Origin: Rhynchonema sp. JSB1_4
Lineage: Eukaryota > Nematoda > Chromadorea > Monhysterida > Xyalidae
DNA length: 64,000 bases
Reading direction: 5' to 3'
NCBI GenBank assembly: GCA_030248065.1
Contig: JASAMV010006792.1
Location: 20,827 to 84,826 of the forward strand
The notes under the pieces were generated by a model. That model ran no database searches. It saw only the letters and a list, made by a program, of their open reading frames with translations, and was not told the origin of the DNA. Positions 1 to 63,967 of the stretch are shown one piece after another. The translations under genes and the position numbers were made by a program. Position 1 is the first letter of the stretch. Each line of letters starts with the position of its first letter.

Positions 1-1623
1 GTGCTGCTGGGTCGCAAAGCCGACGCACCGGTCACCGTGGTCGACCTTGGCAACCGGGTCTACCGCGCCAGTTACAAGCCGCAGATTTCCGGTGAGAATT
101 ATAATGATTTTTTTTATTTCAATCGAATCCAAACCATTATATGCAACTCGACTTGAAACTCAGGCAAATACAACTTGGAAGTGCTCTGGAACGACGAAGA
201 GATCGACGGCAGTCCGTTCAAGGTGGATGTCGGCGAGACGGGCGGGGCTGATAAGATCATTGTCAACACCGACACGCTCAAATTCGGCATCATCAAACAG
301 GAACTGCAGACCACCATTGATACGAGATTAGCCGAGCCAGGTTCAATACGAACATCATTTTAGCAATCCTTCCGACATTAATTGTTTCTTCAAATTTGAA
401 CATGACCGATTCACATGATAGGCCAACTGAGCTGCGAATGCGTCGGCCCATCGGGTCTGTGTCACAGCGCGTTGTTCGATAACGACCACGACGGCACGTA
501 CACACTCGTGATGAAACCGACCGAAGTCGGCAAGCATAATCTTTCAGTTAAATACACCGGCGAACACGTTGAAGGTTCAATTTTGTGATCTTGAAGAGTG
601 TTGCTGGATTTTGAAGGTTCCCGTGACACTGAAGTTGTCTGGCACGTTGGCTGTTTGCAGGCAGTCCATTCGCGATTTACGTCTCTCACCCGCCCGATCC
701 GAACAAGGTGCGTGTGTACGGGCCAGGTGTTGAACACGGCATTCTGTCACGGTATCGTTCCAACTTCATGGTCGAAACGAAAGGCGCCGGCGCCGGCCAG
801 CTGACCGTACGTGTACGAGGACCGAAAGGTATTCGGGAGTTTCGAACTTAGTAGCTGTGCGTTTGATTTCTTGCAAACACAACCTGCAGATGCGAAGTCA
901 AAAGGCGCAACTTTTCGAATCGAATATCTTTGGGATATTCCCAATTGTACAGCAAAGTCTTGATTGCCTGAGTCGACCTGCTTTCGCAGACCGGTGGTGC
1001 ATCAGGTCGTCGTCAGTGCGACAGCACTAGATGGTCCCGTGAACCGATGCCACGGGCTTTGTGCAGTTTAGAACACGATAGTGTGGTTGTTCTCATCGTT
1101 CATAGATGACCACTGCTTGTGCGCAGGACGAGTGACTCATTCCACCATTCGCATCACAGGTGCGTTCAACGTCGACATGACACGCGAGTCGAAACAGGAT
1201 CGCACCATTCACTGCAAGTACGAGCCGCGCGAGCCGGGCGATTACGTGATCGAGGTCAAATGGGCGAACGAGCACGTTCCCGGCAGTCCGTTCATGGTGA
1301 TGATATTCGACACTCAGGCCGAACTCGACCGATTCCTTCGCGGTCAACCGCCATCCCCGCCGCCAGGGACGCCATTCCTGCCTCCCGGTTGGGTGGGACC
1401 TCCACCTGGCATGATTGGACCTCCCGGCCCGATGCCGCCACCAGGTATGATCTACGGACCTCCACCCCCACCGGGTGCCTTCATTGGTGGCCCGCCACCT
1501 CCGATGATGTCCGGGCGACCGATGCTGCCCCCGCCACCCGTACCGGCAATCACATATCCGGACAGCACTCTTCACAGTACGGCCAGGAGAAGGCATCGTC
1601 AGTCGTTGCAGAATGGATACTAG
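1..1623 (+). CDS. Filamin-family protein, 3' end (last five exons, C-terminal Ig repeats and Pro-rich tail)
   Basis: Filamins crosslink actin and scaffold signalling proteins through arrays of Ig-like repeats. Exons read as 1-91, 164-340, 422-574, 661-828 and 1160-1623. All are joined in the same phase (G|GT donors, AG|GC or AG|GT acceptors), and the stop is at 1621-1623. Seen in the translation: the repeat-ending motif GSPF occurs three times (DGSPFKVDVG, EGSPFAIYV, PGSPFMVMIF), with EPGDYVIEVKW in the last repeat, which is typical of filamin domains. After the last repeat comes AELDRFLRGQ, then about 95 residues rich in PPPG/GPPG and a basic end. That tail could bind profilin, WW or EVH1 modules (inference). 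I see no canonical vertebrate-style C-terminal dimerisation repeat after it. The gene is cut by the window start, so the actin-binding CH domains are not visible. A Drosophila jitterbug-like filamin is a reasonable alternative label. Confidence 0.9.
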
Positions 1624-4097: not shown

Positions 4098-4532
4098 AGG
4101 CTCTCAAAGTTTTGATAAAACACAACTTGCTCTCAAAGTTTGGATAAAACACAACTTGCTCTCAAAGTTTGGATAAAACACAACTTGCTCTCAAAGTTTG
4201 GATAAAACACAACTTGCTCTCAAAGTTTGGATAAAACACAACTTGCTCTCAAAGTTTGGATAAAACACAACTTGCTCTCAAAGTTTGGATAAAACACAAC
4301 TTGCTCTCAAAGTTTGGATAAAACACAACTTGCTCTCAAAGTTTGGATAAAACACAACTTGCTCTCAAAGTTTGGATAAAACACAACTTGCTCTCAAAGT
4401 TTGGATAAAACACAACTTGCTCTCAAAGTTTGGATAAAACACAACTTGCTCTCAAAGTTTGGATAAAACACAACTTGCTCTCAAAGTTTGGATAAAACAC
4501 AACTTGCTCTCAAAGTTTGGATAAAACACAAC
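4098..4532. repeat. 29-bp tandem repeat (minisatellite), about 15 copies
   Basis: The unit GATAAAACACAACTTGCTCT plus CAAAGTTTG repeats head to tail with a constant 29-bp period. The copies are essentially identical apart from the first, which has one base missing near 4111. Such homogeneity implies recent expansion or ongoing homogenisation. Confidence 0.97.
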
Positions 4533-5161
4533 TTATCACTCAAAATCTCAACAATCTGAGTGTAATCGCAATGACCAAACTCACTTTGCCGGTGACGTTG
4601 TTTTGCCAAACGGCAACCGCGACTGTTTCACTTGTTTCGTGGGCTGTCGGGGTTGAACTGCCGGCAGTTTGGTTGCCGGTTTTGACATCATGTCGAACAC
4701 ACTGCTGCTGTGGTTGGCTGTGGTGGTTACGTTGTCGCTGGTGGACTGAAAGACATGTGCGCAGAAAGGCTGATTATACTGTGGTCAACTCAAGTGGTCA
4801 AATCAGCTCGTCAACTCACAGTGGCCCTGAGCGAGTGCGAGAAATAGTATACATGATGGCACATGGTCAGGAATACAGCCAACCTTGAAAGGATTTCTGC
4901 TCGAAGCCGCTGATTTGCTCGGATCCAGCGTCGCTGACCAGTCCAGTGAGTTTTGATCGTTGCTCTGGAATTTTCTGCACATATAGGTTATTCTCATGGA
5001 ACATCAGGTTTGTGATAAACGCGTTTTGAACTTGATCCGCGGCAGCACCGTAAGTTGTTGCGCTCGATCAATCGCTGCTACGAACGGATATTACTCGTCG
5101 GTATCACACTCTCAATCCGGTAAACCAAACACCGAATCTAATCCGATTCCGTGACAATTAA

Positions 5162-6758: not shown

Positions 6759-23279
<16,521 letters not shown>

Positions 23280-39974: not shown

Positions 39975-42900
39975 TCATTTCTCAAGCCTAAATGTGACAT
40001 GAAAACAGCGCACGTTGGTGAAAAACGTGGTTCCACGCGCATGGGCGCAATCAGCGCGCACGCCCTTGGGAAATGCGCTATGAGAGGTCAATCCTTGCAG
40101 AAACCAAACGTCGTCTTTTGAGCACACCACCGGTCCGCCGGAGTCACCCTGGGTAGAATATAGAAATTAGACATTTTGACGGCGTCGTTCGCTGGGGATG
40201 ATCCTGGATTTAATGTGACGCCAATCTCTATATACTTCCTCTGCGCAGACTGAGTAAAGGTGGCGCACAGGTGCCACGGTTTTTATAGTGCCCTAAACCC
40301 CGCCCGAATAGAGCCCTTGTAGTTTCCGAGACCCCCTCCTGCCAATTCATAGTTGGAACTGGCTTGCCAACCCTAGCGAGACCATAACTTCAAAGACTAA
40401 ACTGACATTACATTTCGTGTGTTGTACAGGTACCTACGCTCCAGTTAAGATATTTCTCCGCATTCGGGCTCATTTTTTCTCTATTTCTCTTGCCCTATTT
40501 CTACACAGTACAAAAGTGATATATTTTTACAACTTCACTTTTATTTGGCTGGAATATGATCCCGATTAGAATGCCGGGTCGTGTCGTGATCGCGATAAGG
40601 CTTTCAATAATGGGGATCATCGGAAGTTCGTGTCGGGTTCATTCCTGTTCAAGCGCTGCTGCCCAGAGAACCAACCCGACAAACGTCCGCCAACGGCTGG
40701 CCATGTCGAACCGAGCAGAACTTGCTGTTGCGCAGCGCGTCTTGCAACGGTCGGGACGCATTCGGATAGCCGAGTTTGAGGCCGGACTTCGAATTCGCCA
40801 ATGCCGCAAAACAATGCTCGGTGTCGGCTACCGTCAGCATCGCTTGCTTCAGTGGGCCGTGGTAGGCTGCTGTAAAAGGTTCGTTTCAAGTGTCGTTCGT
40901 CGTATAGAACTTTTTATGTCTGTCAGGTGCAATTTTCTGTCGACATTTTTATTTATCTAACCGATTTCCCTGCGGCTTGCAGCGGTAGAATTGATACATG
41001 GAAAGTATTTTGGTTATTTTAGTTCATAATTCGAACCAAGTCCCCCTCCCCCCTCCCGAGCCGACGAACGGTAGCGAGTTGGTTCGAAAGAACGTTCTTT
41101 ATATGTCCATCTCTCAAGACACCGAAGACTACAGTATTTCCTAAGCCCCTCTCAGTGCATGGCTGAAAAAATAGAAGCCCCCGCCCCCTGGGCGTCACAC
41201 TCATATTTCATTGCCAATCAGTGGTTAATAAAAAAATATTTTATTCAAACCCCATTTTTTTTAAAAAAAATTTTTTTAATTTAAAAAAAATTTTTATTCC
41301 AGCCAAAATCTGCCCAACACGATAAAAAAATGAGCACTCCAGCACAAAATAGGGGTATTTTTGTTACATAATGTGTTCTAAGTGCATACAAAGCACAAGC
41401 GATACGAAAACCATGCTATCCAATGGTCGATAAGTACCAACCATAGTCAGGTACACACCCGTACCGTTCCCCAGGTGGGCTTTCTGATATTCGGGATGGG
41501 AATTTTGGGTGAAATTATGACGTCTAGGTACGCGACCAATGCAAATAAGCTGCACATAGTGTGAAATTAGAGTGGATACAAAATAGAATCACTCCTTTCG
41601 GGTCTGGGGCATGGATAAATAAATGCCCACCCATTCACATGTACGTGTGTAGTCATATGAGAGGCCCTGCGAGTGTGTGCACTATGTCCAGATGCCACAA
41701 AACAACGATTACGGCACCCAATACACCCATGGTAGGGTTAGGCGATGTCAACAGTAGCAATTTTTATGCAAAAAAATAGCACTTTTAGAGCAAAAAATGG
41801 AGAAATTTCCGAATTTTGAAATAATAAAAAAAAATTTTTTAACTTTCTGGAGGAATTTTTTTTAATAAAAATTAAAAAAAAAAAAACACTGTTGCCAACG
41901 CTCGTTTTTAGCAATATGTTCACTGATTGTAATTTTAGTTTGTTTTAGAACATTTCTTACTTGGTCAACAAAACACTTTTTCCTGCATTATTTTTCAGAT
42001 TTTAGCCTGCTTGTCATTCTAAATAACGAGGTTTTCAATCTCACACAAGAAATAGATGCCCCGGTCGCAATAGAAGCCCCCTCTAATAAAAGCACCCTCA
42101 GAACCACGGTTGAAAAAATAGAAGCCCAGAGCTTCTACTGGAGGAAATACGTTAATCCGGTAACCCGACAATTTTCAAAATGTCGCAAAATATGAAAATG
42201 CGGCGCAAACAACCACCAACATTGATTCTCGGTCATTCCCCAGCCAGTGGTGAAACAGTGCGCGCCGATGGGCAGCTCGGCGGGCAGGCAAACGGGTTGA
42301 ACGTGTGCGTTGAATTGGATCGCATCATCGAACACGAGAACTGCAACCTTGAACTGGCACATATACTTAAACAGGTGGAAACAATTTGTGTCAACGAAAT
42401 CAAACTTGGTGATCGGCCCGGTCTTGGGCCTTGATGAGGCGACTAGTTTCGACCAGCGTAAAGGTTGTGACCAGATCCGAAATAACAACTTTTAGCCTGG
42501 TCGAAATTTGTGGCATCAGCAACCCTCGGAATATCTTCAATGCAACAAAAATTCACGTGATCAGGGCATCACCGACTTATCACCAGGCTCGATTTCGCCC
42601 TGTATATGTTTCAAGGCACAGCTTTGTGAGTCAAACCAGGAGATGGCTTTGGTCGATGCCTTGCCTTGTGCCTGGTTTGAGAGATTGCGTATCAAATACT
42701 TTTACAAATACTTTTTCGTCCACTGAAAGCTACATACAGTATGTAGACCATTCTCGCACTCCTGGGCTTATTACGACCCCCAAGTGGTCGGCCAAACATA
42801 GTGGCATAGGATTGTTACTTACAATGCGTCCCACCATAAGGATAAACCACCCCCAACAACAGCAGCAACAACGTACGTGCGATGTCGCCAATCATGTGTA

Positions 42901-44250
42901 TGGTGTTGAAGTCTTCACTGATAATGATCTTTGATGGATGGTACACGGTGGCGTTGTAATTGTCCGGATTACGTCGGCCTTCGGCACTGACGCGTGCCGA
43001 ATCGTGCATGCCTACGAACACGTCGATCAATTGCGGCACCAACGATTCATTCAGATAGAACTGCCACTCGGTACTGGAACAGAAACCACGCTGGCATGGC
43101 GTAGGAAGATTGCGATTCCGCTTCCCCTTCAGTATCACTACATCGGCATGCAATGCGGAAACATGGACCAATATTCCTCGCGCCCATTCTGGGCTGCTTT
43201 GGTCCGGCTGCGTGTTGACCAGCCAGCGTTGACATTTACGCTGACGACCAAACAATTGCCTCTCGGGGCTAATAGTTTTGTTGTCAATTCATGTCGTCAC
43301 TAATAAAGTCGTCGAAGAAGCAATAATACAAGAGAACCAAATGAACGCGAAAACAATACATGTGATTTGACGACAAAATGTGATGACATGATTTGACACG
43401 ACACTACTGTCAGCCCCGCTCGATCCACCCCTATCGCAACACTTACACACAATGAGCAGCAGTGATCACGTGACGCGCGTCAATAACCGATCCGCCGCAA
43501 CGACACAACTGATCATGTACGTCAGGCACAAAGCGTCGTCTTTGCACCAAGCACACTTGCCACGGCCAGCTGTGCGCGATCGCTGGTTGGCCGTCTGCAC
43601 ACAAGAGCGAATATTGTGCATAAATTAGGTTTTTGGGAGACATTTGCCTTAATTTTTGCCGACAAGTTCAGTGACACCAAGCCAGGTCGTGGCAGTGCAC
43701 CAGACATCATTCTGACCACAAAAGAGAATTTTTATTCCGCTATGATTACATGAGTGAATGCAATGCTACTCTGGGCTATTTGCATCCTTGTTGTGTTTTG
43801 TCTCTAATCGTGACGTTGAGCAACTCTTTTTTACTTACATTCATGAACTGGCCTTTGCACTGTATCTTCTGACACTTTTACCTCACCGTGAAACTTCGAA
43901 TGTTCACGTTTTGGGAGACACCTTGGATTTAGCTTTAGTCAAGGAAAACTTTGGTGAGCCCGACTAATGTGCGGAAACGCACATACGCCCATACGCACGA
44001 GGTAGGATGGTGATCTGGCCTATTACGACAGTACACCCTGCTCAAGTACTGATAGACAAATCTATAATTAGCCATATTCATAGAGTGTCTGGCGACCAAC
44101 ACTAACTATGTATCAACGGAACAGTAGGTGACTCTGGTTCATCGTCGCGCGGATAATCCACCTGATTCACGTAGTCTTGATCTTCCAGCATCGACACATC
44201 TGGTGGGATTCGTGGCACGCCGCACGTGGACTTTCGCTGATTCTTGCCAT
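39975..44250 (-). CDS. Trypsin-like serine protease (S1/chymotrypsin fold), triad intact
   Basis: A secreted-type endopeptidase cleaving after Lys/Arg (inferred). Exons (- strand): about 44250-44123, 43594-43447, 43073-42877, 42340-42221, 40869-40676, 40148-39975. The first carries CGVPRIPPD, the Cys-containing propeptide region. Next, AHSWPWQVCLV and GGSVIDARHVITAAHCV carry catalytic His. DIALLVFDDAIQF, formed across the 42877/42340 junction, carries catalytic Asp, followed by VQPVCLP and CFTTGWGMTE. Then ADTEHCFAAL, and DVCR|GDSGGPVVC with catalytic Ser; Asp six residues before it fits trypsin specificity. Joins from 43447 onward agree in phase. The link between the first two exons does not, and no RIVGG activation site or signal peptide was found, so one or more 5' exons are missing. 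The last exon may splice onward after FFTN. Confidence 0.9.
41225..41300. repeat. A/T homopolymer block in protease intron
   Basis: Alternating runs of T and A, like the ends of the CAGGGTTGG elements but without their termini. Probably a remnant. A second such block is at 41820-41885. Confidence 0.5.
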
Positions 44251-44469
44251 CTGCAAGAGAATACGTGGTGTAAGAGACACCATTATAGTCGTTACTGGTG
44301 TAAGAGACACCATTATAGTCGTTACGCTTGCTGGGTTTATTACATTAAGGTCATACTCCAACTGGAGGAAAAACCTTTGTCACGCACTTTTTGAATCGTC
44401 CCCCTGTTGCGGTCCTTCCCCACCGAAGGTTGAAAGCTGGCGAGCCAGGATCCAATCACGATAGAAGAG

Positions 44470-44495
44470 GATCTGTGTGTGTGTGTGTGTGTGTG
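44470..44495. repeat. (GT)n microsatellite just outside the palindrome
   Basis: About ten GT dinucleotides, followed by a C run, immediately left of the 4.8-kb palindrome. The right flank has no matching tract. Confidence 0.85.
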
Positions 44496-44789
44496 TTGCC
44501 CCCCCAAACCACGTAATGCTAAGCGACATATGGTTCATTCCCTATAGTGCGCTTTCTGAAAATTTTGATCGTGCGCTATTTCAACAATACTCAACCGAAT
44601 GAGCTCAAACTTGCACACAATGTATATACCGTGCCCCAAAATGGCCACACAAAATTTCATCCCGCTGCGTGCCCACACGCGCAATCGCGGGCAAGATACA
44701 GTTGTCATTTTTGTAAAAACGTTCTTTCCCTTTTTTTTTCCACAAAAGAGTAGTCAGGGCCCAGACGTTACTGAACACCAGAAATGTTA

Positions 44790-45065
44790 ATATCGCATAT
44801 AGGGTTTTCGCACACGAGAAACACGATGGTGCTATCGCCGACTTCGTAACTCCACGACTGAGACCGGTTCCAGACCATGACCACGACTTTTTGTATGTAA
44901 AGTGTGCTTCCCGAAGTAAAATTTCGCCGAAAAGTTGGGTTACCAGAACTATTAAAGTTGTTTATGTGGTTTTCGTACTCGAGAAACACGGTGGTGCTAT
45001 CGCCGAGTTCGTAACTTTTAGTATGAACGGTTCCAGACCATGACTTTTTGTACAGAATGTGTGGT
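44790..45065 (-). repeat. Duplicated about 130-bp segment within each palindrome arm
   Basis: CGAGAAACAC(G)..TGGTGCTATCGCC and TTCCAGACCATGAC occur twice in tandem. The 102-codon open frame over them (mirrored at 48760-49068) therefore repeats the motif GDSTxVFLxxEN. It has no recognised domain and is not called as a gene. Confidence 0.6.
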
Positions 45066-45269
45066 TCTAAAGCCAAAATCAGCGGTTATATGTGTTTTTA
45101 ATTTTTGTTACGTCAAAAATATATTAATTCCAATACGTTAAATGTTTTTCAGCTCAAAAAGAGCCATAATGGACGCTCAGACACACACAATAATGCATTA
45201 GTGCACGCTACGTAGTTGCCTGATTCATAAAGCGCACAATGTATTAAACACAACACACAGCCAGCCAGC

Positions 45270-45325
45270 CAGACACACACACACAGGCAGGCAGGCAGCC
45301 AACACACACACACAGGCAGCAAGCA
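45270..45325. repeat. GCCA / CACA / GGCA microsatellite, left arm
   Basis: Short runs of CCAG, CA and GGCA in two rounds. The equivalent in the right arm (48515-48575) has the two CA blocks in different lengths or order, one of the few places where the arms differ. Confidence 0.8.
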
Positions 45326-45384
45326 CAACAGGCAATGCAGCAATGCACGCGTAGTTACATATGTAGTAAAGATTGTGAAGGAGA

Positions 45385-45460
45385 TTGGCGAAGCGATGTC
45401 CGAGCGGTATAACGCGCAGCATTGAAGATGAAAGGCCGCGGGTTCAAACATTCACGCGCG
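45385..45460 (+). repeat. tRNA-like segment (possible SINE head), left arm
   Basis: GATGTCCGAGCGGTATAACG resembles a Leu/Ser-type A box and D arm. GCGGGTTCAAACATTC resembles a T arm/B box about 45 bases on, close to tRNA spacing. A clean anticodon stem and acceptor stem do not form, so this is a decayed tRNA or a tRNA-derived SINE rather than a working gene. The mirror copy is at about 48375-48450 (-). Confidence 0.35.
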
Positions 45461-46334
45461 CAGCCAACTTTGTTGTATTTTTATTAACTTTTAATGAATT
45501 CTGCGTAACATTTTTTCAGTTTTTTCGTGTTTTTATTTGAGATTAATTATTAAGCACAGGTGCGGTTCGCAGTTTATGCGCTGTGATGTCATTCATGATA
45601 AAATACCGACAAGATTTCAACTTCTTAATTAAAATAGCTGTTGCTCTCTAACATTCGAAGCTTTTTCCGCATTTATAATTTGACTTTCGTGGGAAAGTTA
45701 AATAGTAGTTTTTACGTAACATTGAATCCAAGATCAGATGCGGCGGCCAACACCAAAGCAATCTGGAGACTGATGTTTGACACTTATTTCATTGCTGAAG
45801 CTGAAGGGACAGGTTGCATGGAAGTTCATTGCACAGCTTTGCTTGGTACTAAACCAACAAGTGCCATTCTCTGAGACGATGCGCAATCAGTGCGCTATAA
45901 TTGATGGTACCTAGGGTGTCAAATACATACCTGGCGGTAAATTAAAAAAAATAAATAACTTGACAAGTTACCATGTTCCTCAAAAACATAGACATGCTCG
46001 TGGGGCACTGCGTTAGTTTTGTTTCAGTGGTGGGTGAAGACGCAGACACAAGCGTGTCTCCATTGTTAGAACCCCATAGTGAAATCGAAACACAAAATTG
46101 GCCTTATGTCACGATAACCACCGATTCATATATCCTGCCAAAAAGTACAGCATCCTTAAACTAACCCCCACACCTCATTGCGCTCATGTGCGTTGATTAC
46201 TTGAGAAAAGTCTGACGGTCGACATTTTCTTAGTTAGAACCATTGCTTGCCGGAACTGAAAACTTTCTGTGCCTGATTTATCCGGGTTCTCTGTTTGACG
46301 CTTGCGCGATATAAAAGAACGACACAAGAAAGAA

Positions 46335-46870
46335 AAATGCCCCAAGGGGCATAAAAGAAATATGGTTCCCTGGCTGACTGGCATAAAAGAACGATACTAG
46401 CTTGCACCACTTTGCTGATGTTTCATTAGGCACTGGAATAAACGTAAGTGTGTTCTGAGCTGTTTGATACCGAACAGTAGACATTGAACCATATTCCCGG
46501 CGCGAACTCTTTTGAACCAACACCCAGCCGATATCGAAACTTTCGTGCAAACCCAGGCAACTGTTTCTTCTTTTCAACCTCACGACGGTAACTGTGCAGT
46601 CTTCGGTTGCGCACGATGGTTTAACAAAGAGAGGAGTAAAGAGAATATTGCAATCTTTCAATATCTCCGTGCCCTGTGTCTCTGGTGGCAAGACAGCACG
46701 CGCCGGGAATATGGTTCAATGTCTACTGTTCGGTATCAAACAGCTCAGAACACACTTACGTTTATTCCAGTGCCTAATGAAACATCAGCAAAGTGGTGCA
46801 AGCTAGTATCGTTCTTTTATGCCAGTCAGCCAGGGAACCATATTTCTTTTATGCCCCTTGGGGCATTTTT
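46335..46870. mobile_element. 535-bp inner inverted-repeat element, left copy
   Basis: Ends are about 170-bp inverted repeats running from AATGCCCCAAGGGGCATAAA to CCATATTCCCGGCGCG. They enclose about 190 bp of unique core. The second copy lies inverted at 46967-47503, so the palindrome centre holds four copies of the 170-bp end sequence. No transposase is encoded. Confidence 0.8.
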
Positions 46871-46966
46871 CTTTCTTGTTATTTTTTATACTCATTTCTA
46901 TACCATATCAAAATTTTTTCTATATATTCTTTTTATTTTACTTTCATTTTTTATTTAATAATAAAA

Positions 46967-47503
46967 AATGCCCCAAGGGGCATAAAAGAAATATGGTTCC
47001 CTGGCTGACTGGCATAAAAGAACGATAACTAGCTTGCACCACTTTGCTGATGTTTCATTAGGCACTGGAATAAACGTAAGTGTGTTCTGAGCTGTTTGAT
47101 ACCGAACAGTAGACATTGAACCATATTCCCGGCGCGTGCTGTCTTGCCACCAGAGACACAGGGCACGGAGATATTGAAAGATTGCAATATTCTCTTTACT
47201 CCTCTCTTTGTTAAACCATCGTGCGCAACCGAAGACTGCACAGTTACCGTCGTGAGGTTGAAAAGAAGAAACAGTTGCCTGGGTTTGCACGAAAGTTTCG
47301 ATATCGGCTGGGTGTTGGTTCAAAAGAGTTCGCGCCGGGAATATGGTTCAATGTCTACTGTTCGGTATCAAACAGCTCAGAACACACTTACGTTTATTCC
47401 AGTGCCTAATGAAACATCAGCAAAGTGGTGCAAGCTAGTATCGTTCTTTTATGCCAGTCAGCCAGGGAACCATATTTCTTTTATGCCCCTTGGGGCATTT
47501 TTC
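46967..47503. mobile_element. 535-bp inner inverted-repeat element, right copy
   Basis: Mirror of 46335-46870, with one extra A (GATAACTAG versus GATACTAG near 47025). The two copies are separated only by the AT-rich loop 46871-46966. Confidence 0.8.
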
Positions 47504-48374
47504 TTTCTTGTGTCGTTCTTTTATATCGCGCAAGCGTCAAACAGAGAACCCGGATAAATCAGGCACAGAAAGTTTTCAGTTCCGGCAAGCAATGGTTCTA
47601 ACTAAGAAAATGTCGACCGTCAGACTTTTCTCAAGTAATCAACGCACATGAGCGCAATGAGGTGTGGGGGTTAGTTTAAGGATGCTGTACTTTTTGGCAG
47701 GATATATGAATCGGTGGTTATCGTGACATAAGGCCAATTTTGTGTTTCGATTTCACTATGGGGTTCTAACAATGGAGACACGCTTGTGTCTGCGTCTTCA
47801 CCCACCACTGAAACAAAACTAACGCAGTGCCCCACGAGCATGTCTATGTTTTTGAGGAACATGGTAACTTGTCAAGTTATTTATTTTTTTTAATTTACCG
47901 CCAGGTATGTATTTGACACCCTAGGTACCATCAATTATAGCGCACTGATTGCGCATCGTCTCAGAGAATGGCACTTGTTGGTTTAGTACCAAGCAAAGCT
48001 GTGCAATGAACTTCCATGCAACCTGTCCCTTCAGCTTCAGCAATGAAATAAGTGTCAAACATCAGTCTCCAGATTGCTTTGGTGTTGGCCGCCGCATCTG
48101 ATCTTGGATTCAATGTTACGTAAAAACTACTATTTAACTTTCCCACGAAAGTCAAATTATAAATGCGGAAAAAGCTTCGAATGTTAGAGAGCAACAGCTA
48201 TTTTAATTAAGAAGTTGAAATCTTGTCGGTATTTTATCATGAATGACATCACAGCGCATAAACTGCGAACCGCACCTGTGCTTAATAATTAATCTCAAAT
48301 AAAAACACGAAAAAACTGAAAAAATGTTACGCAGAATTCATTAAAAGTTAATAAAAATACAACAAAGTTGGCTG

Positions 48375-48450
48375 CGCGCGTGAATGTTTGAACCCGCGGC
48401 CTTTCATCTTCAATGCTGCGCGTTATACCGCTCGGACATCGCTTCGCCAA
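48375..48450 (-). repeat. tRNA-like segment (possible SINE head), right arm
   Basis: Reverse-complement twin of 45385-45460, identical over the A-box- and B-box-like parts. Confidence 0.35.
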
Positions 48451-49582
48451 TCTCCTTCACAATCTTTACTACATATGTAACTACGCGTGCATTGCTGCAT
48501 TGCCTGTTGTGCTTGCTGCCTGTGTGTGTGTGTGCTGGCTGCCTGCCTGCCTGTGTGTGTGTGCTGGCTGGCTGGCTGTGTGTTGTGTTTAATACATTGT
48601 GCGCTTTATGAATCAGGCAACTACGTAGCGTGCACTAATGCATTATTGTGTGTGTCTGAGCGTCCATTATGGCTCTTTTTGAGCTGAAAAACATTTAACG
48701 TATTGGAATTAATATATTTTTGACGTAACAAAAATTAAAAACACATATAACCGCTGATTTTGGCTTTAGAACCACACATTCTGTACAAAAAGTCATGGTC
48801 TGGAACCGTTCATACTAAAAGTTACGAACTCGGCGATAGCACCACCGTGTTTCTCGAGTACGAAAACCACATAAACAACTTTAATAGTTCTGGTAACCCA
48901 ACTTTTCGGCGAAATTTTACTTCGGGAAGCACACTTTACATACAAAAAGTCGTGGTCATGGTCTGGAACCGGTCTCAGTCGTGGAGTTACGAAGTCGGCG
49001 ATAGCACCATCGTGTTTCTCGTGTGCGAAAACCCTATATGCGATATTAACATTTCTGGTGTTCAGTAACGTCTGGGCCCTGACTACTCTTTTGTGGAAAA
49101 AAAAAAGGGAAAGAACGTTTTTACAAAAATGACAACTGTATCTTGCCCGCGATTGCGCGTGTGGGCACGCAGCGGGATGAAATTTTGTGTGGCCATTTTG
49201 GGGCACGGTATATACATTGTGTGCAAGTTTGAGCTCATTCGGTTGAGTATTGTTGAAATAGCGCACGATCAAAATTTTCAGAAAGCGCACTATAGGGAAT
49301 GAACCATATGTCGCTTAGCATTACCATGCTAGCTCCGATAACGACTATTGAGATTCTCTTCACCATCAACTCTCTCTACTTCCCTGAGCACACGACAAAG
49401 TTTCGAAGATGTAGTTGTGGTAGAGTTTTTTACAGTTCTTTCCCTCTTCCTTTTTGCTCTTTTAGCCCCCCCGACACTCTGCAGTCAGTTTTCCCACAAC
49501 TGATTTTTCTTCTTTAATTTTTTCCCTCAAAAAGAAAGGCTTTTTAAAGAATTTTAATATTTTTTTTTTTTTTTTTTCTAAC

Positions 49583-50228
49583 GAGCAATGTCGTTCAAAT
49601 CCACTTGTCCCCACACATTCTTCGGGTGCTCAGGAGGTATACTTTTTCTGTCGATGTATTCAAGCACATGACCTTGGTGCATGATCATTTTTATCGGATG
49701 GTATACTTGAGCGGAGGAGAGATTTTTGCGCTCCTCCAGTCCGACGTACACGGACACGTACTTTGGCACACGCTCTTGTTTGAGGTACAGCCACCAGACC
49801 TGCCTGAAATTCACGCTGTTATACCCTTAATTGATCCTGGCGCTTCGACGGTGGGCGTGGAAATATTGAATCGCATCTTGGCTTGATAGTTATAGGTGAT
49901 AAGTGTTGCCCTATTTTTCATCATAAGTGCTTCGCACAAAAAATCGACTGCATCGAGAAACATTAACGTTGTCGGCAATGTTTAGCTTTTCAGAGCCCGC
50001 AAAGTCACAGCTACAGTTACGATTGTGGTTTTCAATTTCACGCGGTATAATATAGCGTGCCACCAAACCAGCGCGCACTGCTCAAACTCACTAACAAGCA
50101 CTTGGCTCCGGTGATCACGTGATGTCGGTCGATGATCGCTCCGCCACACACACACTCAGCTTTGCCATCAACGAACTGATCGTGTATGATGATAAGCACA
50201 TGCCATGGCCAGCTGTGCGGGATTGCAT
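49583..50228 (-). pseudogene. Partial S1 protease paralogue with His-to-Lys catalytic change
   Basis: Two exons, 50228-50096 and 49803-49583, correspond in order and intron phase to the His and Asp exons of the protease at 39975-44250. The first reads IPHSWPWHVLII, VCGGAIIDRHHVITGAKC. The family motif TAAHC has become TGAKC, so catalytic His is Lys. The second reads YVSVYVGLEERKN and ends DLNDIA at a GTTAGA donor, keeping the Asp context. Both exons are open and splice sites look intact. No exon with GDSGGP, nor the VQPVCLP exon, is found downstream; the 4.8-kb palindrome begins about 260 bp away. It is either a truncated pseudogene, an inactive homologue whose other exons were lost, or alternative exons of the neighbouring gene. 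Confidence 0.75.
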
Positions 50229-59526: not shown

Positions 59527-60022
59527 CAGGGTTGGGCAAAAAACGTTTTTTTCCAAAAAATCGTTTTTTTTAAAAAAAACGTTTTTTTTAAAACGCCCAG
59601 ATGACCAAAATATGCCGCCAAAAAATTGGAAAACGCTCATGTTGGGAAGAAAAGGTGGTTAAATGAAGTAATTCTATGTGTTCTGAGGCAAAATAAACGG
59701 GTTTCAACCCGTTTCTAGCGAGTTCTTAAGATCCCATAGCAGACCCGCATCATGGGACCAACTTTGGCTGGGGTCATCATTGAAAATCAAACTCCGTATA
59801 TCGACGTATCTCGACAAAGTAAAAATTGGTCGAAAATTTTTTGAAAAAAATGGGACAAAAAATTGATTTTCCTTGATGATCAGGGTACTTTCCCTGAAAA
59901 ATCAGGGAAAATCAAGGAAATTCAGGATTTAAAAAAAAACGAAAAACGACCCAGGCGTTTTTTTTTAAAAAAAACGTCGTTTTTTTTAAGAAAAAACGCC
60001 GTCGTTTTTTTGCCCAACCCTG
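59527..60022. mobile_element. hAT-like MITE, CAGGGTTGGGC subfamily (copy D)
   Basis: Begins CAGGGTTGGGCAAAAAACG and ends CGTTTTTTTGCCCAACCCTG. It is in the opposite orientation to copy C at 35168-35678. Flanking octamers (GTGGTCGC and GGTCAGGC) do not match, unlike the other copies, which suggests rearrangement at one end. Confidence 0.88.
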
Positions 60023-60186
60023 GGTCAGGCATCTGTTCCATGTAATTAAATTTGACCGATTTCGAAACAAACAACACCGTCTAATCTGGGTCTTGAAGCA
60101 AGCGCGCGAGGGCAGGCCAATTTGTTGACGTCACTTGATCTGATATCATATTGGACACAGAACACTAGCAGCTATTTGTGTGTAAG
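60023..60186. repeat. Inverted repeat arm, partner of 63558-63721
   Basis: About 160 bp, including AATTTGTTGACGTCACTTGA, matches the complement at 63558-63721 with few substitutions. Copy D adjoins it here and a truncated copy adjoins its partner, so the duplication postdates the transposon insertion. Confidence 0.9.
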
Positions 60187-60889: not shown

Positions 60890-60952
60890 CCAGCCGGTCG
60901 GACCAATTGTGGCCCCGTACACTTTCAGACGGAAGTTCATAAATTGTTAAAT

Positions 60953-61730
60953 TTTTCATATTTGGTTTTGTTATTCCAAATCGCGGCATATAATGCAAAT
61001 GTGTTTATATCAGTGACCCTCGCGATCTGGCACCGACTTTTGAGAGCGCTTGGAGATTTTTGCTGAGCATCGTTAATCATAAGTCTGGCATGCTAAAAGG
61101 GCTTTTCATTGAGGTCGAACAGATCCACCCTGGTGCCAGTCGATTTTGGGGTTCTCAAAGAATTTCCATGCGATAAGATTCTTGCGTCATTGTCGAGGCT
61201 TAGGCCCATTATTCATTGGTTCGAATCTCACGCGGTCATATTATTATTGTTATTATTATTTTGTCATGCATTTTCAAAAATTCACCCAATTTGTTTTCAC
61301 TGTCCATTGTTTACAGTATATCCACAGTGTCATAAAAAATTCAATAACAGCGAGCTTACTGTATAAACGCTGATATCAATAGCAGTTGTTATTGTTGAGA
61401 ACGTAAAATTGCGATGTAAGTAAAGATATCAACGGACTGTCTAAAACAATGGTCCAGCGCCTCCAGCATACAAGATTCAGCATTACCGACGCAAAAATTG
61501 GTGGCATGTCACCAAGCAAAGCGAGCTGTGAAGCATAAAACCTATGGGGTTGCAATGCTGAATCCTACAGTTTAGTTGCGCTGTTTGACACCAGTTTCAT
61601 AAAAGTTCCACATTACAACACAGCGAGATTACTGTATAGACGATGATTTACAAGAGGTTTACAAGATTGTAAGGACATTGTAGGACATATCTAATTTATC
61701 TGCCTTGAGAGTGGCTCTATGTATCTTGCA
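60953..61730. other. Gene-free stretch
   Basis: AT-rich, with a (TTA)n run at about 61240-61262. GATTCAGCATT-type sequences around 61475 and 61555 form a small inverted pair. Nothing coding is recognised. Confidence 0.4.
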
Positions 61731-61991
61731 TTAATAATCCAGATCACAACCGCCATAGAAGTTGATCAGGTTTGAAATTGGCGCGTAACTTTGAATGCAA
61801 TAGACATCCGTGGTGCGGTTAGCTGCTCGAGAGCTGCCGAGTTCGTAACTTACGTAGTAGCAGACACCAGCCTGTGATGTAATACCCTGAATCATCAAGG
61901 CTGTTAATTCAGAGAATATTGCAGCGGTGCCTTTGGATGTCACAGAAAAATCGTACCGTAATCGAATCGTCACCCACGCACGGTCGGCCAT
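61731..61991 (-). CDS. Unidentified ORF or exon, 86 codons
   Basis: Reads MADRAWVTIRLRYDFSVTS, then GVCYYVSYELGSS and FYGGCDLDY before a stop. Composition (beta-strand-like, paired Cys) is protein-like, but I know no family. An in-frame stop two codons upstream means it must start at this ATG. The alternative frame, entered from an ACAG acceptor near 62013, reads FQILTNGRPCVGDDSITVRF and stops at 61908; it joins in phase with the candidate exon 62195-62085. The first 28 bases from the ATG recur exactly at 63973-64000 on the plus strand. Confidence 0.35.
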   Translation of the reverse strand: MADRAWVTIRLRYDFSVTSKGTAAIFSELTALMIQGITSQAGVCYYVSYELGSSRAANRTTDVYCIQSYAPISNLINFYGGCDLDY

Positions 61992-63557: not shown

Positions 63558-63721
63558 ACTTACACACAAATAGCTGCTAGTGTTCTGTGTCCAATATGAT
63601 ATCAGATCAAGTGACGTCAACAAATTGGCCGGCCCTCGCGCGCTTGCTTCAAGACCCAGATTAGACGGTTTTGTTTGTTTCTTAATCGGTCATATTTATT
63701 TACATGCAACAGTTGCCTGAC
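63558..63721. repeat. Inverted repeat arm, partner of 60023-60186
   Basis: Complement of 60023-60186 with a few substitutions (for example GGCCGGCCCTCGCG versus GGCCTGCCCTCGCG). It leads directly into the truncated transposon at 63722. Confidence 0.9.
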
Positions 63722-63967
63722 CATGGGTTGGGCAAAAAAAACGACGGCGTTTTTTCTTAAAAAAACGACGTTTTTTTTAAAAAAAAACGCCTGGGTCGTG
63801 TTTGGTTTTTTTTTTTTACGGAATTTCCGTGATTTTACCTGTTTTTTCAGGGAAAGTACCCTGAACATCCAGGGACATCAATTTTTTTTCCAAATTTTTT
63901 CTAAAAATTTTAGAACAATTTTTACTTGTCGAGATACGTCGATATACGGAGTTTGATTTTCAATGAT
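63722..63967. mobile_element. Truncated hAT-like MITE, CAGGGTTGGGC subfamily (copy F)
   Basis: Starts CATGGGTTGGGCAAAAAAAA and follows copy C/D to about GATTTTCAATGATGAC. It then switches to sequence matching the start of the 61991 ORF instead of the rest of the element. Confidence 0.85.

What the first reader, a model, noticed from the sequence alone, without database searches (positions are those of the whole stretch)
44514..49323. A 4.8-kb near-perfect palindrome between two serine protease units
Two arms of about 2.36 kb are inverted copies around a 96-bp AT-rich loop. They differ only in repeat-tract lengths and a few single-base indels, so the structure is young or kept identical by gene conversion. 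I see no target duplication and no transposase. It separates an intact protease gene from a paralogue that stops at an exon boundary about 260 bp from the palindrome edge. It could be a foldback transposon, a template-switch inverted duplication that truncated the paralogue, or an assembly artefact. The length differences between arms argue against a simple assembly mirror.
Basis: partly seen in the sequence, partly recalled or inferred. Interest (0 to 1): 0.75.

Follow-up and report, generated by a model that had tools for sequence, protein, structure and literature searches.

The report
Two back-to-back copies of a Helitron
The palindrome is two copies of a young jumping element of the rolling-circle (Helitron) type lying tail to tail beside a damaged protease gene, and this element carries a small end segment that occurs in both orientations about equally often in the genome, much as parvovirus ends flip and flop.

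Summary
The palindrome is real. Each arm is one copy of a ~2.38-kb non-coding repeat; all 40 scored copies match at 99-100% and 361 exact 5' ends exist in the 204-Mb genome. The repeat has Helitron marks: 5'-TC, a hairpin 12 nt before a CTTG-3' end, no target duplication, insertion between A and T (A before 17 of 20 copies, T after 17 of 17 intact ends). A relative shares its first 1,366 bp (94.5%) about 10 kb upstream of Rep and PIF1-helicase matches. So it is a tail-to-tail pair of non-autonomous Helitrons, not a foldback transposon. Contig C2644, probably the other haplotype, has 1.75 kb with a trypsin exon that the window lacks, where the window has the pair.

The unexpected part: the element's 3' end is a perfect 181-bp inverted repeat around a 194-bp segment found in either orientation, 36 against 37 exact matches, even among copies with no substitution between them in the body. 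A substitution in one arm is mirrored in the other. This resembles parvovirus flip/flop. My paper searches showed no such report for Helitrons. Mechanism is inferred.

The parts
44513..46878 (+). left Helitron copy (winL); first 14 nt of the element missing; 3' end CTTG followed by T
46964..49338 (-). right Helitron copy (winR); intact 5' TC end preceded by A; last 8 nt before the usual 3' end replaced
46880..46963 (.). AT-rich spacer between the two 3' ends; 46880-46956 has no other match in the genome
46324..46504 (+). arm b of the 3' inverted repeat, left copy (181 bp)
46505..46698 (+). invertible segment c, left copy (194 bp), '+' orientation
46699..46879 (+). arm b' of the 3' inverted repeat, left copy, with the 3' terminal hairpin
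47137..47330 (-). invertible segment c, right copy, also '+' with respect to its own element
47331..47511 (-). arm b, right copy
44474..44496 (.). short TG repeat at the left edge of homology to C2644, where it is a repeat of about 290 bp or more
49339..49577 (.). 239 bp between the pair and the truncated paralogue, no other match in the genome
49578..50250 (-). truncated trypsin paralogue; exon 50041-50250 matches Trypsin profile 6-46
39978..43667 (-). the other trypsin gene (exons 43446-43667, 42138-42491, 39978-40166)

Best explanation
The palindrome is two copies of one young, non-autonomous Helitron family, tail to tail, about 85 bp apart. Each element has a 5'-TC end, a ~1.81-kb non-coding body (A) whose beginning is shared with a longer relative that lies upstream of Rep and helicase exons, and a 3' end built as a perfect 181-bp inverted repeat (b/b') around a 194-bp segment (c), ending in a hairpin and CTTG. 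Shown: the family, its ends, A|T insertion, copy number, both orientations of c. Inferred: a RepHel enzyme made elsewhere nicks at TC, peels off one strand, stops at the hairpin and inserts it between A and T. Inferred and less sure: c inverts often because b and b' can pair, so copying or recombination across the hairpin reverses the loop; one route is an inverted dimer A-b-c-b'-A', either strand of which gives a valid element with c one way or the other. The pair arose in one inverted-dimer or inverted-duplication event (slightly favoured) or by two insertions, on a haplotype that lost about 1.75 kb including coding sequence of a trypsin paralogue.
For: Arms. 679 candidate places, the 40 scored all 99-100%. 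361 exact 5' ends, reversed control 0; 609 exact 3' hairpin ends, control 0, two per intact element. Single units in 19 of 20 10-kb loci. A before 17 of 20, T after 17 of 17 intact ends, three altered 3' ends set aside. Predicted 6-bp hairpin, 12 nt before the end of CTTG. Longer relative on C166: 1,366 bp at 94.5%, Helitron_like_N about 10 kb downstream, 68.6 bits, PIF1 above cut-off in two frames. Orientation of c: 8 and 14 of 22 copies read; 36 and 37 exact matches, controls 0. Arm substitution mirrored in 6 of 6 copies that carry it, of 22 aligned. C2644 comparison.
Against: The 3' end of the C166 element was not found up to base 108349 and no exact copy of the family's 3' end is listed on C166, so the enzyme is linked by neighbourhood only. 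No exact head-to-tail circle junction in the genome. 3 of 20 copies have T or G before the 5' end. No complete A-b-c-b'-A' dimer was seen. 610 bp of the C2644 stretch were not read. Two ends of the pair are damaged, so the pair is not two clean insertions.
Confidence: 0.85

Rival explanations
1. The pair comes from two independent Helitron insertions that landed tail to tail.
For: Both copies equal the family majority in A; 3 of the 152 other pairs compared also have 0 substitutions. The CA tract differs: winR has the commonest tract form, winL a form of its own. Head-to-head neighbours 1.2 kb apart on C479 and tail-to-tail neighbours 2.7 kb apart on C97 exist.
Against: Shared marker combination absent from the 19 other aligned copies. 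By my arithmetic from 361-600 copies, tail-to-tail pairs within 100 bp are expected 0.02-0.04 times per genome. Both copies have damaged ends. The tested spacer is not found on C2644 or elsewhere.
Confidence: 0.42
2. A long-armed foldback (TIR) transposon.
For: Overall shape: long inverted arms, short loop, no transposase frame.
Against: 19 of 20 10-kb loci hold one unit; L029 also has a diverged partial copy about 4 kb away. Among 13 shorter loci, 7 of which are copies already counted, L004 alone shows a second unit, head to head. The tested loop occurs once. No target duplication.
Confidence: 0.02
3. Segment c is inverted after insertion by ordinary recombination or template switching between the two perfect arms; transposition plays no part.
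For: 181-bp perfect arms in 19 of 21 units measured; a 1:1 ratio is the expected equilibrium; orientation hardly follows descent (5 changes, shuffled mean 6.7).
Against: Three copies with 0 substitutions in A already differ in orientation, so inversion would have to be fast compared with mutation. A shared arm substitution is mirrored in the other arm, single-copy ones (L032, L035) are not, which fits change during copying, on very few sites.
Confidence: 0.4
4. The two orientations of c are an assembly artefact: reads too short to cross arm b, so the assembler chose at random.
For: Random choice also gives 1:1. Contigs often begin inside an element: about 13 of the first 100 listed 5' ends.
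Against: Copies carry their own substitutions and insertions deep in the body and neither the 43 loci checked nor the window hold runs of N; that needs reads anchored over a kilobase or more, far longer than b. Reads were not available.
Confidence: 0.12
5. The palindrome is an assembly mirror or a folded-back read.
For: Near-perfect arms.
Against: The copies differ at 5' end, 3' end and CA/poly-T tracts; the flanks are different sequences that both match C2644 in the right order.
Confidence: 0.03

Closest known systems
Canonical Helitrons: Helraiser/Helibat1 (PMC4778049, passages seen) and HELPO2 of Pleurotus (PMC4289320, passages seen)
   Same: 5'-TC; [quoted passage not shown] A/T insertion; no target duplication; CTTG end as in HELPO2; non-autonomous copies outnumber enzyme-coding ones.
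   Different: Helraiser ends in CTAG. The passages seen describe no 181-bp inverted copy of the 3' end and no segment found in both orientations.
Composite Fusarium Helitrons (PMC5148889, passages and section 16 seen)
   Same: Self-insertion in opposite orientation is proposed there to reverse an internal part and to duplicate termini; a self-insertion could have made b and b'.
   Different: Those are Helitron2 elements with short asymmetric terminal repeats; the reversal is a rare historical event, not a 1:1 state within a family.
Parvovirus/AAV flip-flop termini (PMC3087758, passages seen; AAV details recalled)
   Same: A terminal hairpin found in two orientations; [quoted passage not shown] the initiator proteins are of the HUH class (recalled).
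   Different: No capsid gene seen in the copies; one hairpin end only; integrated copies; no dimer intermediate shown here.
Foldback and Galileo elements (recalled)
   Same: Long inverted arms with little between.
   Different: Here the mobile unit is a single arm with Helitron ends and no target duplication.

Membership tests
Helitron (non-autonomous) | 5'-TC terminus at a constant boundary | tested here: met
   20 of 20 copies read have the TCGGAGCTAGCATG end at the flank boundary; 361 exact ends genome-wide
Helitron (non-autonomous) | hairpin about 10-12 nt before the 3' end | tested here: met
Helitron (non-autonomous) | 3'-CTRR | tested here: not met
   CTTG in 17 of 20 copies, altered in 3; CTTG is reported for HELPO2 (PMC4289320), so this lowers the 'canonical' label, not the order
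Helitron (non-autonomous) | insertion between A and T, no target duplication | tested here: met
   A 17 of 20; T 17 of 17 intact ends. Inferred from flanks; no empty site was aligned
Helitron (non-autonomous) | related element encoding Rep-helicase with the same ends | tested here: inconclusive
   C166: same 5' end, Helitron_like_N and PIF1 matches downstream; 3' end not found
Helitron (non-autonomous) | circular intermediate with joined ends | tested here: inconclusive
   no exact joined-end sequence in the assembly; free circles cannot be seen this way
Foldback/TIR transposon | inverted arms bound one mobile unit and recur together | tested here: not met
Foldback/TIR transposon | target-site duplication | tested here: not met
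   flanks of 20 copies and of the pair
Parvovirus-like rolling-hairpin replicon | terminal hairpin sequence in two orientations at about 1:1 | tested here: met
   36 against 37, one unit on C1053 counted in both
Parvovirus-like rolling-hairpin replicon | inverted dimers joined through one shared hairpin | tested here: inconclusive
   only a 7-bp trace at C1053
Parvovirus-like rolling-hairpin replicon | free intermediates primed from the hairpin | not testable with these tools
   needs DNA from cells

The most novel reading that the evidence does not exclude
A eukaryotic Helitron family has acquired a parvovirus-like hairpin terminus: an inverted copy of its own 3' end makes a 181-bp stem whose loop is flipped as the element replicates, so Helitron transposition can pass through hairpin-primed inverted dimers, and palindromic pairs such as the one in this window are integrated products of that route.
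Probability: 0.25. Interest if true: 0.8.

Novelty: new variant of a known kind. Interest (0 to 1): 0.5.

Why it matters
How a Helitron strand is completed and ended is still partly inferred. A family with a 1:1 invertible end gives a natural record: each copy stores an orientation, so rolling-circle, hairpin-primed and post-insertion recombination models predict different dimers, different linkage of the two arms and different behaviour at single loci. It also shows two young Helitrons and loss of part of a gene together on one haplotype, and warns that a near-perfect palindrome in an assembly may simply be two fresh transposon copies.

Tried and rejected
Foldback transposon: rejected. Gene conversion as the cause of the 0 substitutions between arms: not needed, both equal the family majority. 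Rfam on the window at gathering threshold: 0 matches. Plasmid records with the left copy: no match; viral contigs with the first 21 bases of the 5' end: no match. A zinc-finger-like reading of segment c: no Pfam match up to E 10. Similarity of the pair to the six Helitron_like_N loci as first fetched: none; the C166 link appeared only when its upstream DNA was read. 3' end of the C166 element: not found. Exact circle junction: none. Naming the species: a filamin exon gave 27 hits, the named ones from leafhoppers (58-63%) and Trichinella (58-73%), on partial coverage; species left unnamed. The excess of '-' among the 22 read copies (14 of 22, p = 0.29) is not significant and is not seen in the genome-wide count (p = 1.0).

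Rows dropped before counts: L020, L024, L032, L036 (large inserts) from the full-length alignment; L028 from the A alignment, because its anchor carries a substitution; winR and L021 (no intact 3' end found) from the unit set, and L019, L020, L022 (over 620 bp) from its alignment; L030 could not be measured for arm mismatch; L030 and the window copies were left out of the rate test, which used 14 copies; L024, L032, L036 were left out of the pair list. L010-L016 were fetched as best matches to b-c-b' and L043 was picked from that list, so their arms are not an unbiased sample; the 20 10-kb loci were picked from the best matches to the outer 788 bp.
Full report
OBSERVATION. The inverted arms are present as described. 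They run from 44513 to about 46870 and from about 46964 to 49324; the right copy of the element continues to 49338. The outer ~1.8 kb differs by no substitution; the differences are a poly-T length, a CA/CAGG tract and a single-base indel.

WHAT THE ARMS ARE. The window lies in a genome of 203.9 Mb in 5,747 contigs. The outer 788 bp of the left arm has 679 candidate places; the 40 scored, both window arms included, match at 99-100%. I read 20 loci of up to 10 kb picked from these. In 19 of 20 the element matches lie at one site and form a single unit in the order A (about 1.81 kb) - b - c - b', in some copies with an insertion or deletion; L029 also has a diverged partial copy about 4 kb away. 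Of 13 shorter loci, seven are copies already among the 20; of the other six, L004 has a head-to-head neighbour 1.2 kb away. The true 5' end is TCGGAGCTAGCATGGTAATGC; the left copy of the pair lacks its first 14 nt. An exact 37-base pattern finds 361 such 5' ends, reversed control 0. The 3' end is a predicted 6-bp hairpin, 12 nt, ending in CTTG; its exact pattern has 609 places, control 0; an intact element has two, one in each arm. The base before the 5' end is A in 17 of 20 copies (T in 2, G in 1) and the base after CTTG is T in 17 of 17 intact ends; three copies with altered 3' ends were set aside. These are Helitron marks as given in passages of PMC4778049 and PMC4289320, which reports a CTTG end for HELPO2.

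AUTONOMOUS RELATIVE. Six places in the genome match Helitron_like_N above cut-off; none of 14 control genomes does. One, C166:96873-97286, lies about 10 kb downstream of a 5' end of this family (C166:86904) that matches 1,366 bp at 94.5%. PIF1 helicase matches above cut-off follow on the same strand, with a sub-threshold ubiquitin-hydrolase match after them. Of 68 relatives of the helicase part, the named ones include PIF1-like proteins of parasitoid wasps at 28-40%. No 3' end was found up to base 108349, and C166 is not among the exact 3' ends, whose list covers that contig. The link between 5' end and enzyme is likely but not closed.

THE FLIPPING SEGMENT. In the 22 copies read, segment c lies one way in 8 and the other way in 14. 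The A-b junction is the same in both kinds, and so is the 3' end where intact. A 197-base exact pattern from the end of A through b into c occurs 36 times for one orientation (both window copies included) and 37 times for the other, controls 0 (binomial p = 1.0). One unit on C1053 is counted in both. The pattern samples only part of the family and leaves out the six-copy clade described next. Orientation hardly follows descent: on a tree of A from 21 copies it needs 5 changes (bootstrap 5-6; at least 2 forced by starred branches; shuffled mean 6.7, 57-59 of 500 shuffles as low; 13 of 17 inner branches unresolved). L029 and L031 (one way) and L034 (the other) have no substitution between them in A. 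A substitution carried by six of 22 aligned units occurs in b and, as its complement, in b' in all six; five of them have c one way and L034 the other. Arms are perfect in 19 of 21 units measured; L032 has one mismatch, L035 an insertion. In 14 copies the arms carry 1 private substitution in 5,092 copy-bases, the later part of A 29 in 14,259, c 8 in 2,716 (Fisher p = 0.003 for arms against that part of A). Fewer changes in the arms could also come from consensus calling, and unbiased conversion alone would not lower the count; I do not lean on it. Folded as a single strand the unit is one long stem.

MECHANISM. Inference. The 3' end of a peeled-off strand can fold so that b' pairs with b and, if extended, copies A, giving A-b-c-b'-A'. 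Each strand of that dimer starts with TC and meets a hairpin and CTTG, but c reads in opposite directions, which gives 1:1 without further assumptions and copies an arm change to both arms. Parvoviruses replicate through such hairpins and head-to-head or tail-to-tail dimers (passages of PMC3087758; AAV flip/flop recalled). A weak trace: at C1053 a 3' end runs on into 7 bp of the reversed end of A before joining A near position 1527, as if copying had gone round the hairpin; seven bases could be chance. Against: no full dimer seen and no exact circle junction. Recombination between the arms after insertion predicts the same ratio and is at least as likely. I searched the open-licence library with Helitron terms combined with flip, hairpin, palindrome, dimer or inversion, plus a general flip-flop transposon search that returned nothing, and saw no report of such a segment in the listings; subscription papers are not covered.

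COULD IT BE ASSEMBLY? Some contigs begin inside elements (about 13 of the first 100 listed 5' ends), so reads did not always span a copy, and a random choice by an assembler would also give 1:1. But copies carry their own substitutions and insertions deep in the body, and neither the 43 loci checked nor the window hold runs of N. That needs reads anchored over a kilobase or more, far beyond the 181-bp arm. I did not see reads.

THE PAIR IN THE WINDOW. Both copies equal the family majority in A, so their identity shows youth. The 19 other aligned copies each carry one of three clade markers (9, 6 and 4 copies); the two window copies carry none. This favours one origin or exchange between the arms. 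Different CA-tract forms weigh a little the other way. The tested spacer, 46880-46956, is found nowhere else. winR has its 5' end after A; winL has its 3' end before T; the other two ends are damaged. By my arithmetic, pairs this close are expected 0.02-0.04 times per genome. I give a joint event slightly better odds than two insertions.

THE PROTEASE. C2644 matches both sides of the pair at 98%: window 43700-44496 and 49578-49900. It also matches 60900-61900 at 96%, but inverted. It is probably the other haplotype; a near paralogue is not excluded. Between the first two matches it has 1,748 bp where the window has 5,081. That stretch begins with a long TG/CG repeat and holds an exon matching Trypsin profile positions 94-151; the window paralogue has an exon for positions 6-46, and no second copy of the later exon was found in the window (only the neighbouring gene matches). 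About 610 bp of the 1,748 were not read. The window haplotype has therefore lost coding sequence of the paralogue. Whether the pair caused the loss or came with it is open.

VERDICT. An ordinary kind of element makes the palindrome; the 1:1 flipping end is the part worth following.

Noticed in passing
window 60900-61900 against G000:C2644:18796-19791: Matches C2644 at 96% but on the opposite strand, while 49.6-49.9 kb matches in the same direction. Inverted repeats at 59817-60186 and 63559-63927 flank this stretch, so an inversion between haplotypes is likely.
   Followed up: partly
window 9540-10794: Inverted repeat of 488 nt, 98%, 279 nt apart, with about 50 TA units in the middle; perhaps another mobile element.
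   Followed up: no
window 19238-22700: Many 60-285 nt direct and inverted repeats built from GGTACACTA and GGGGAAATTAGTGTACC-like units.
   Followed up: no
window 4100-4534: 29-bp unit repeated 15 times at 99%.
   Followed up: no
window 1072-1623: Filamin-like exon; named hits are from leafhoppers and Trichinella, partial coverage.
   Followed up: partly
window 714-810, minus strand: tRNA-Ser (CGA) prediction, 97 bases.
   Followed up: no
L030 and L035, 5' end of the element: The first ~23-25 bp of the element are present twice in tandem at the 5' end, like the duplicated 5' termini described for Fusarium Helitrons (PMC5148889, section 16).
   Followed up: no
G000:C260 and G000:C97: C260 has three b-c-b' units 2.3-2.6 kb apart; C97 has two elements tail to tail with about 2.7 kb between.
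   Followed up: no
listing: Spacing of the two 3' hairpins within one unit falls into classes, 526-528 and about 533-540 bases, so a second length form of segment c exists that was not compared.
   Followed up: no
L046 (G000:C166:104850-106849): Sub-threshold ubiquitin-hydrolase (UCH) matches downstream of the helicase exons; possibly part of the longer Helitron.
   Followed up: partly
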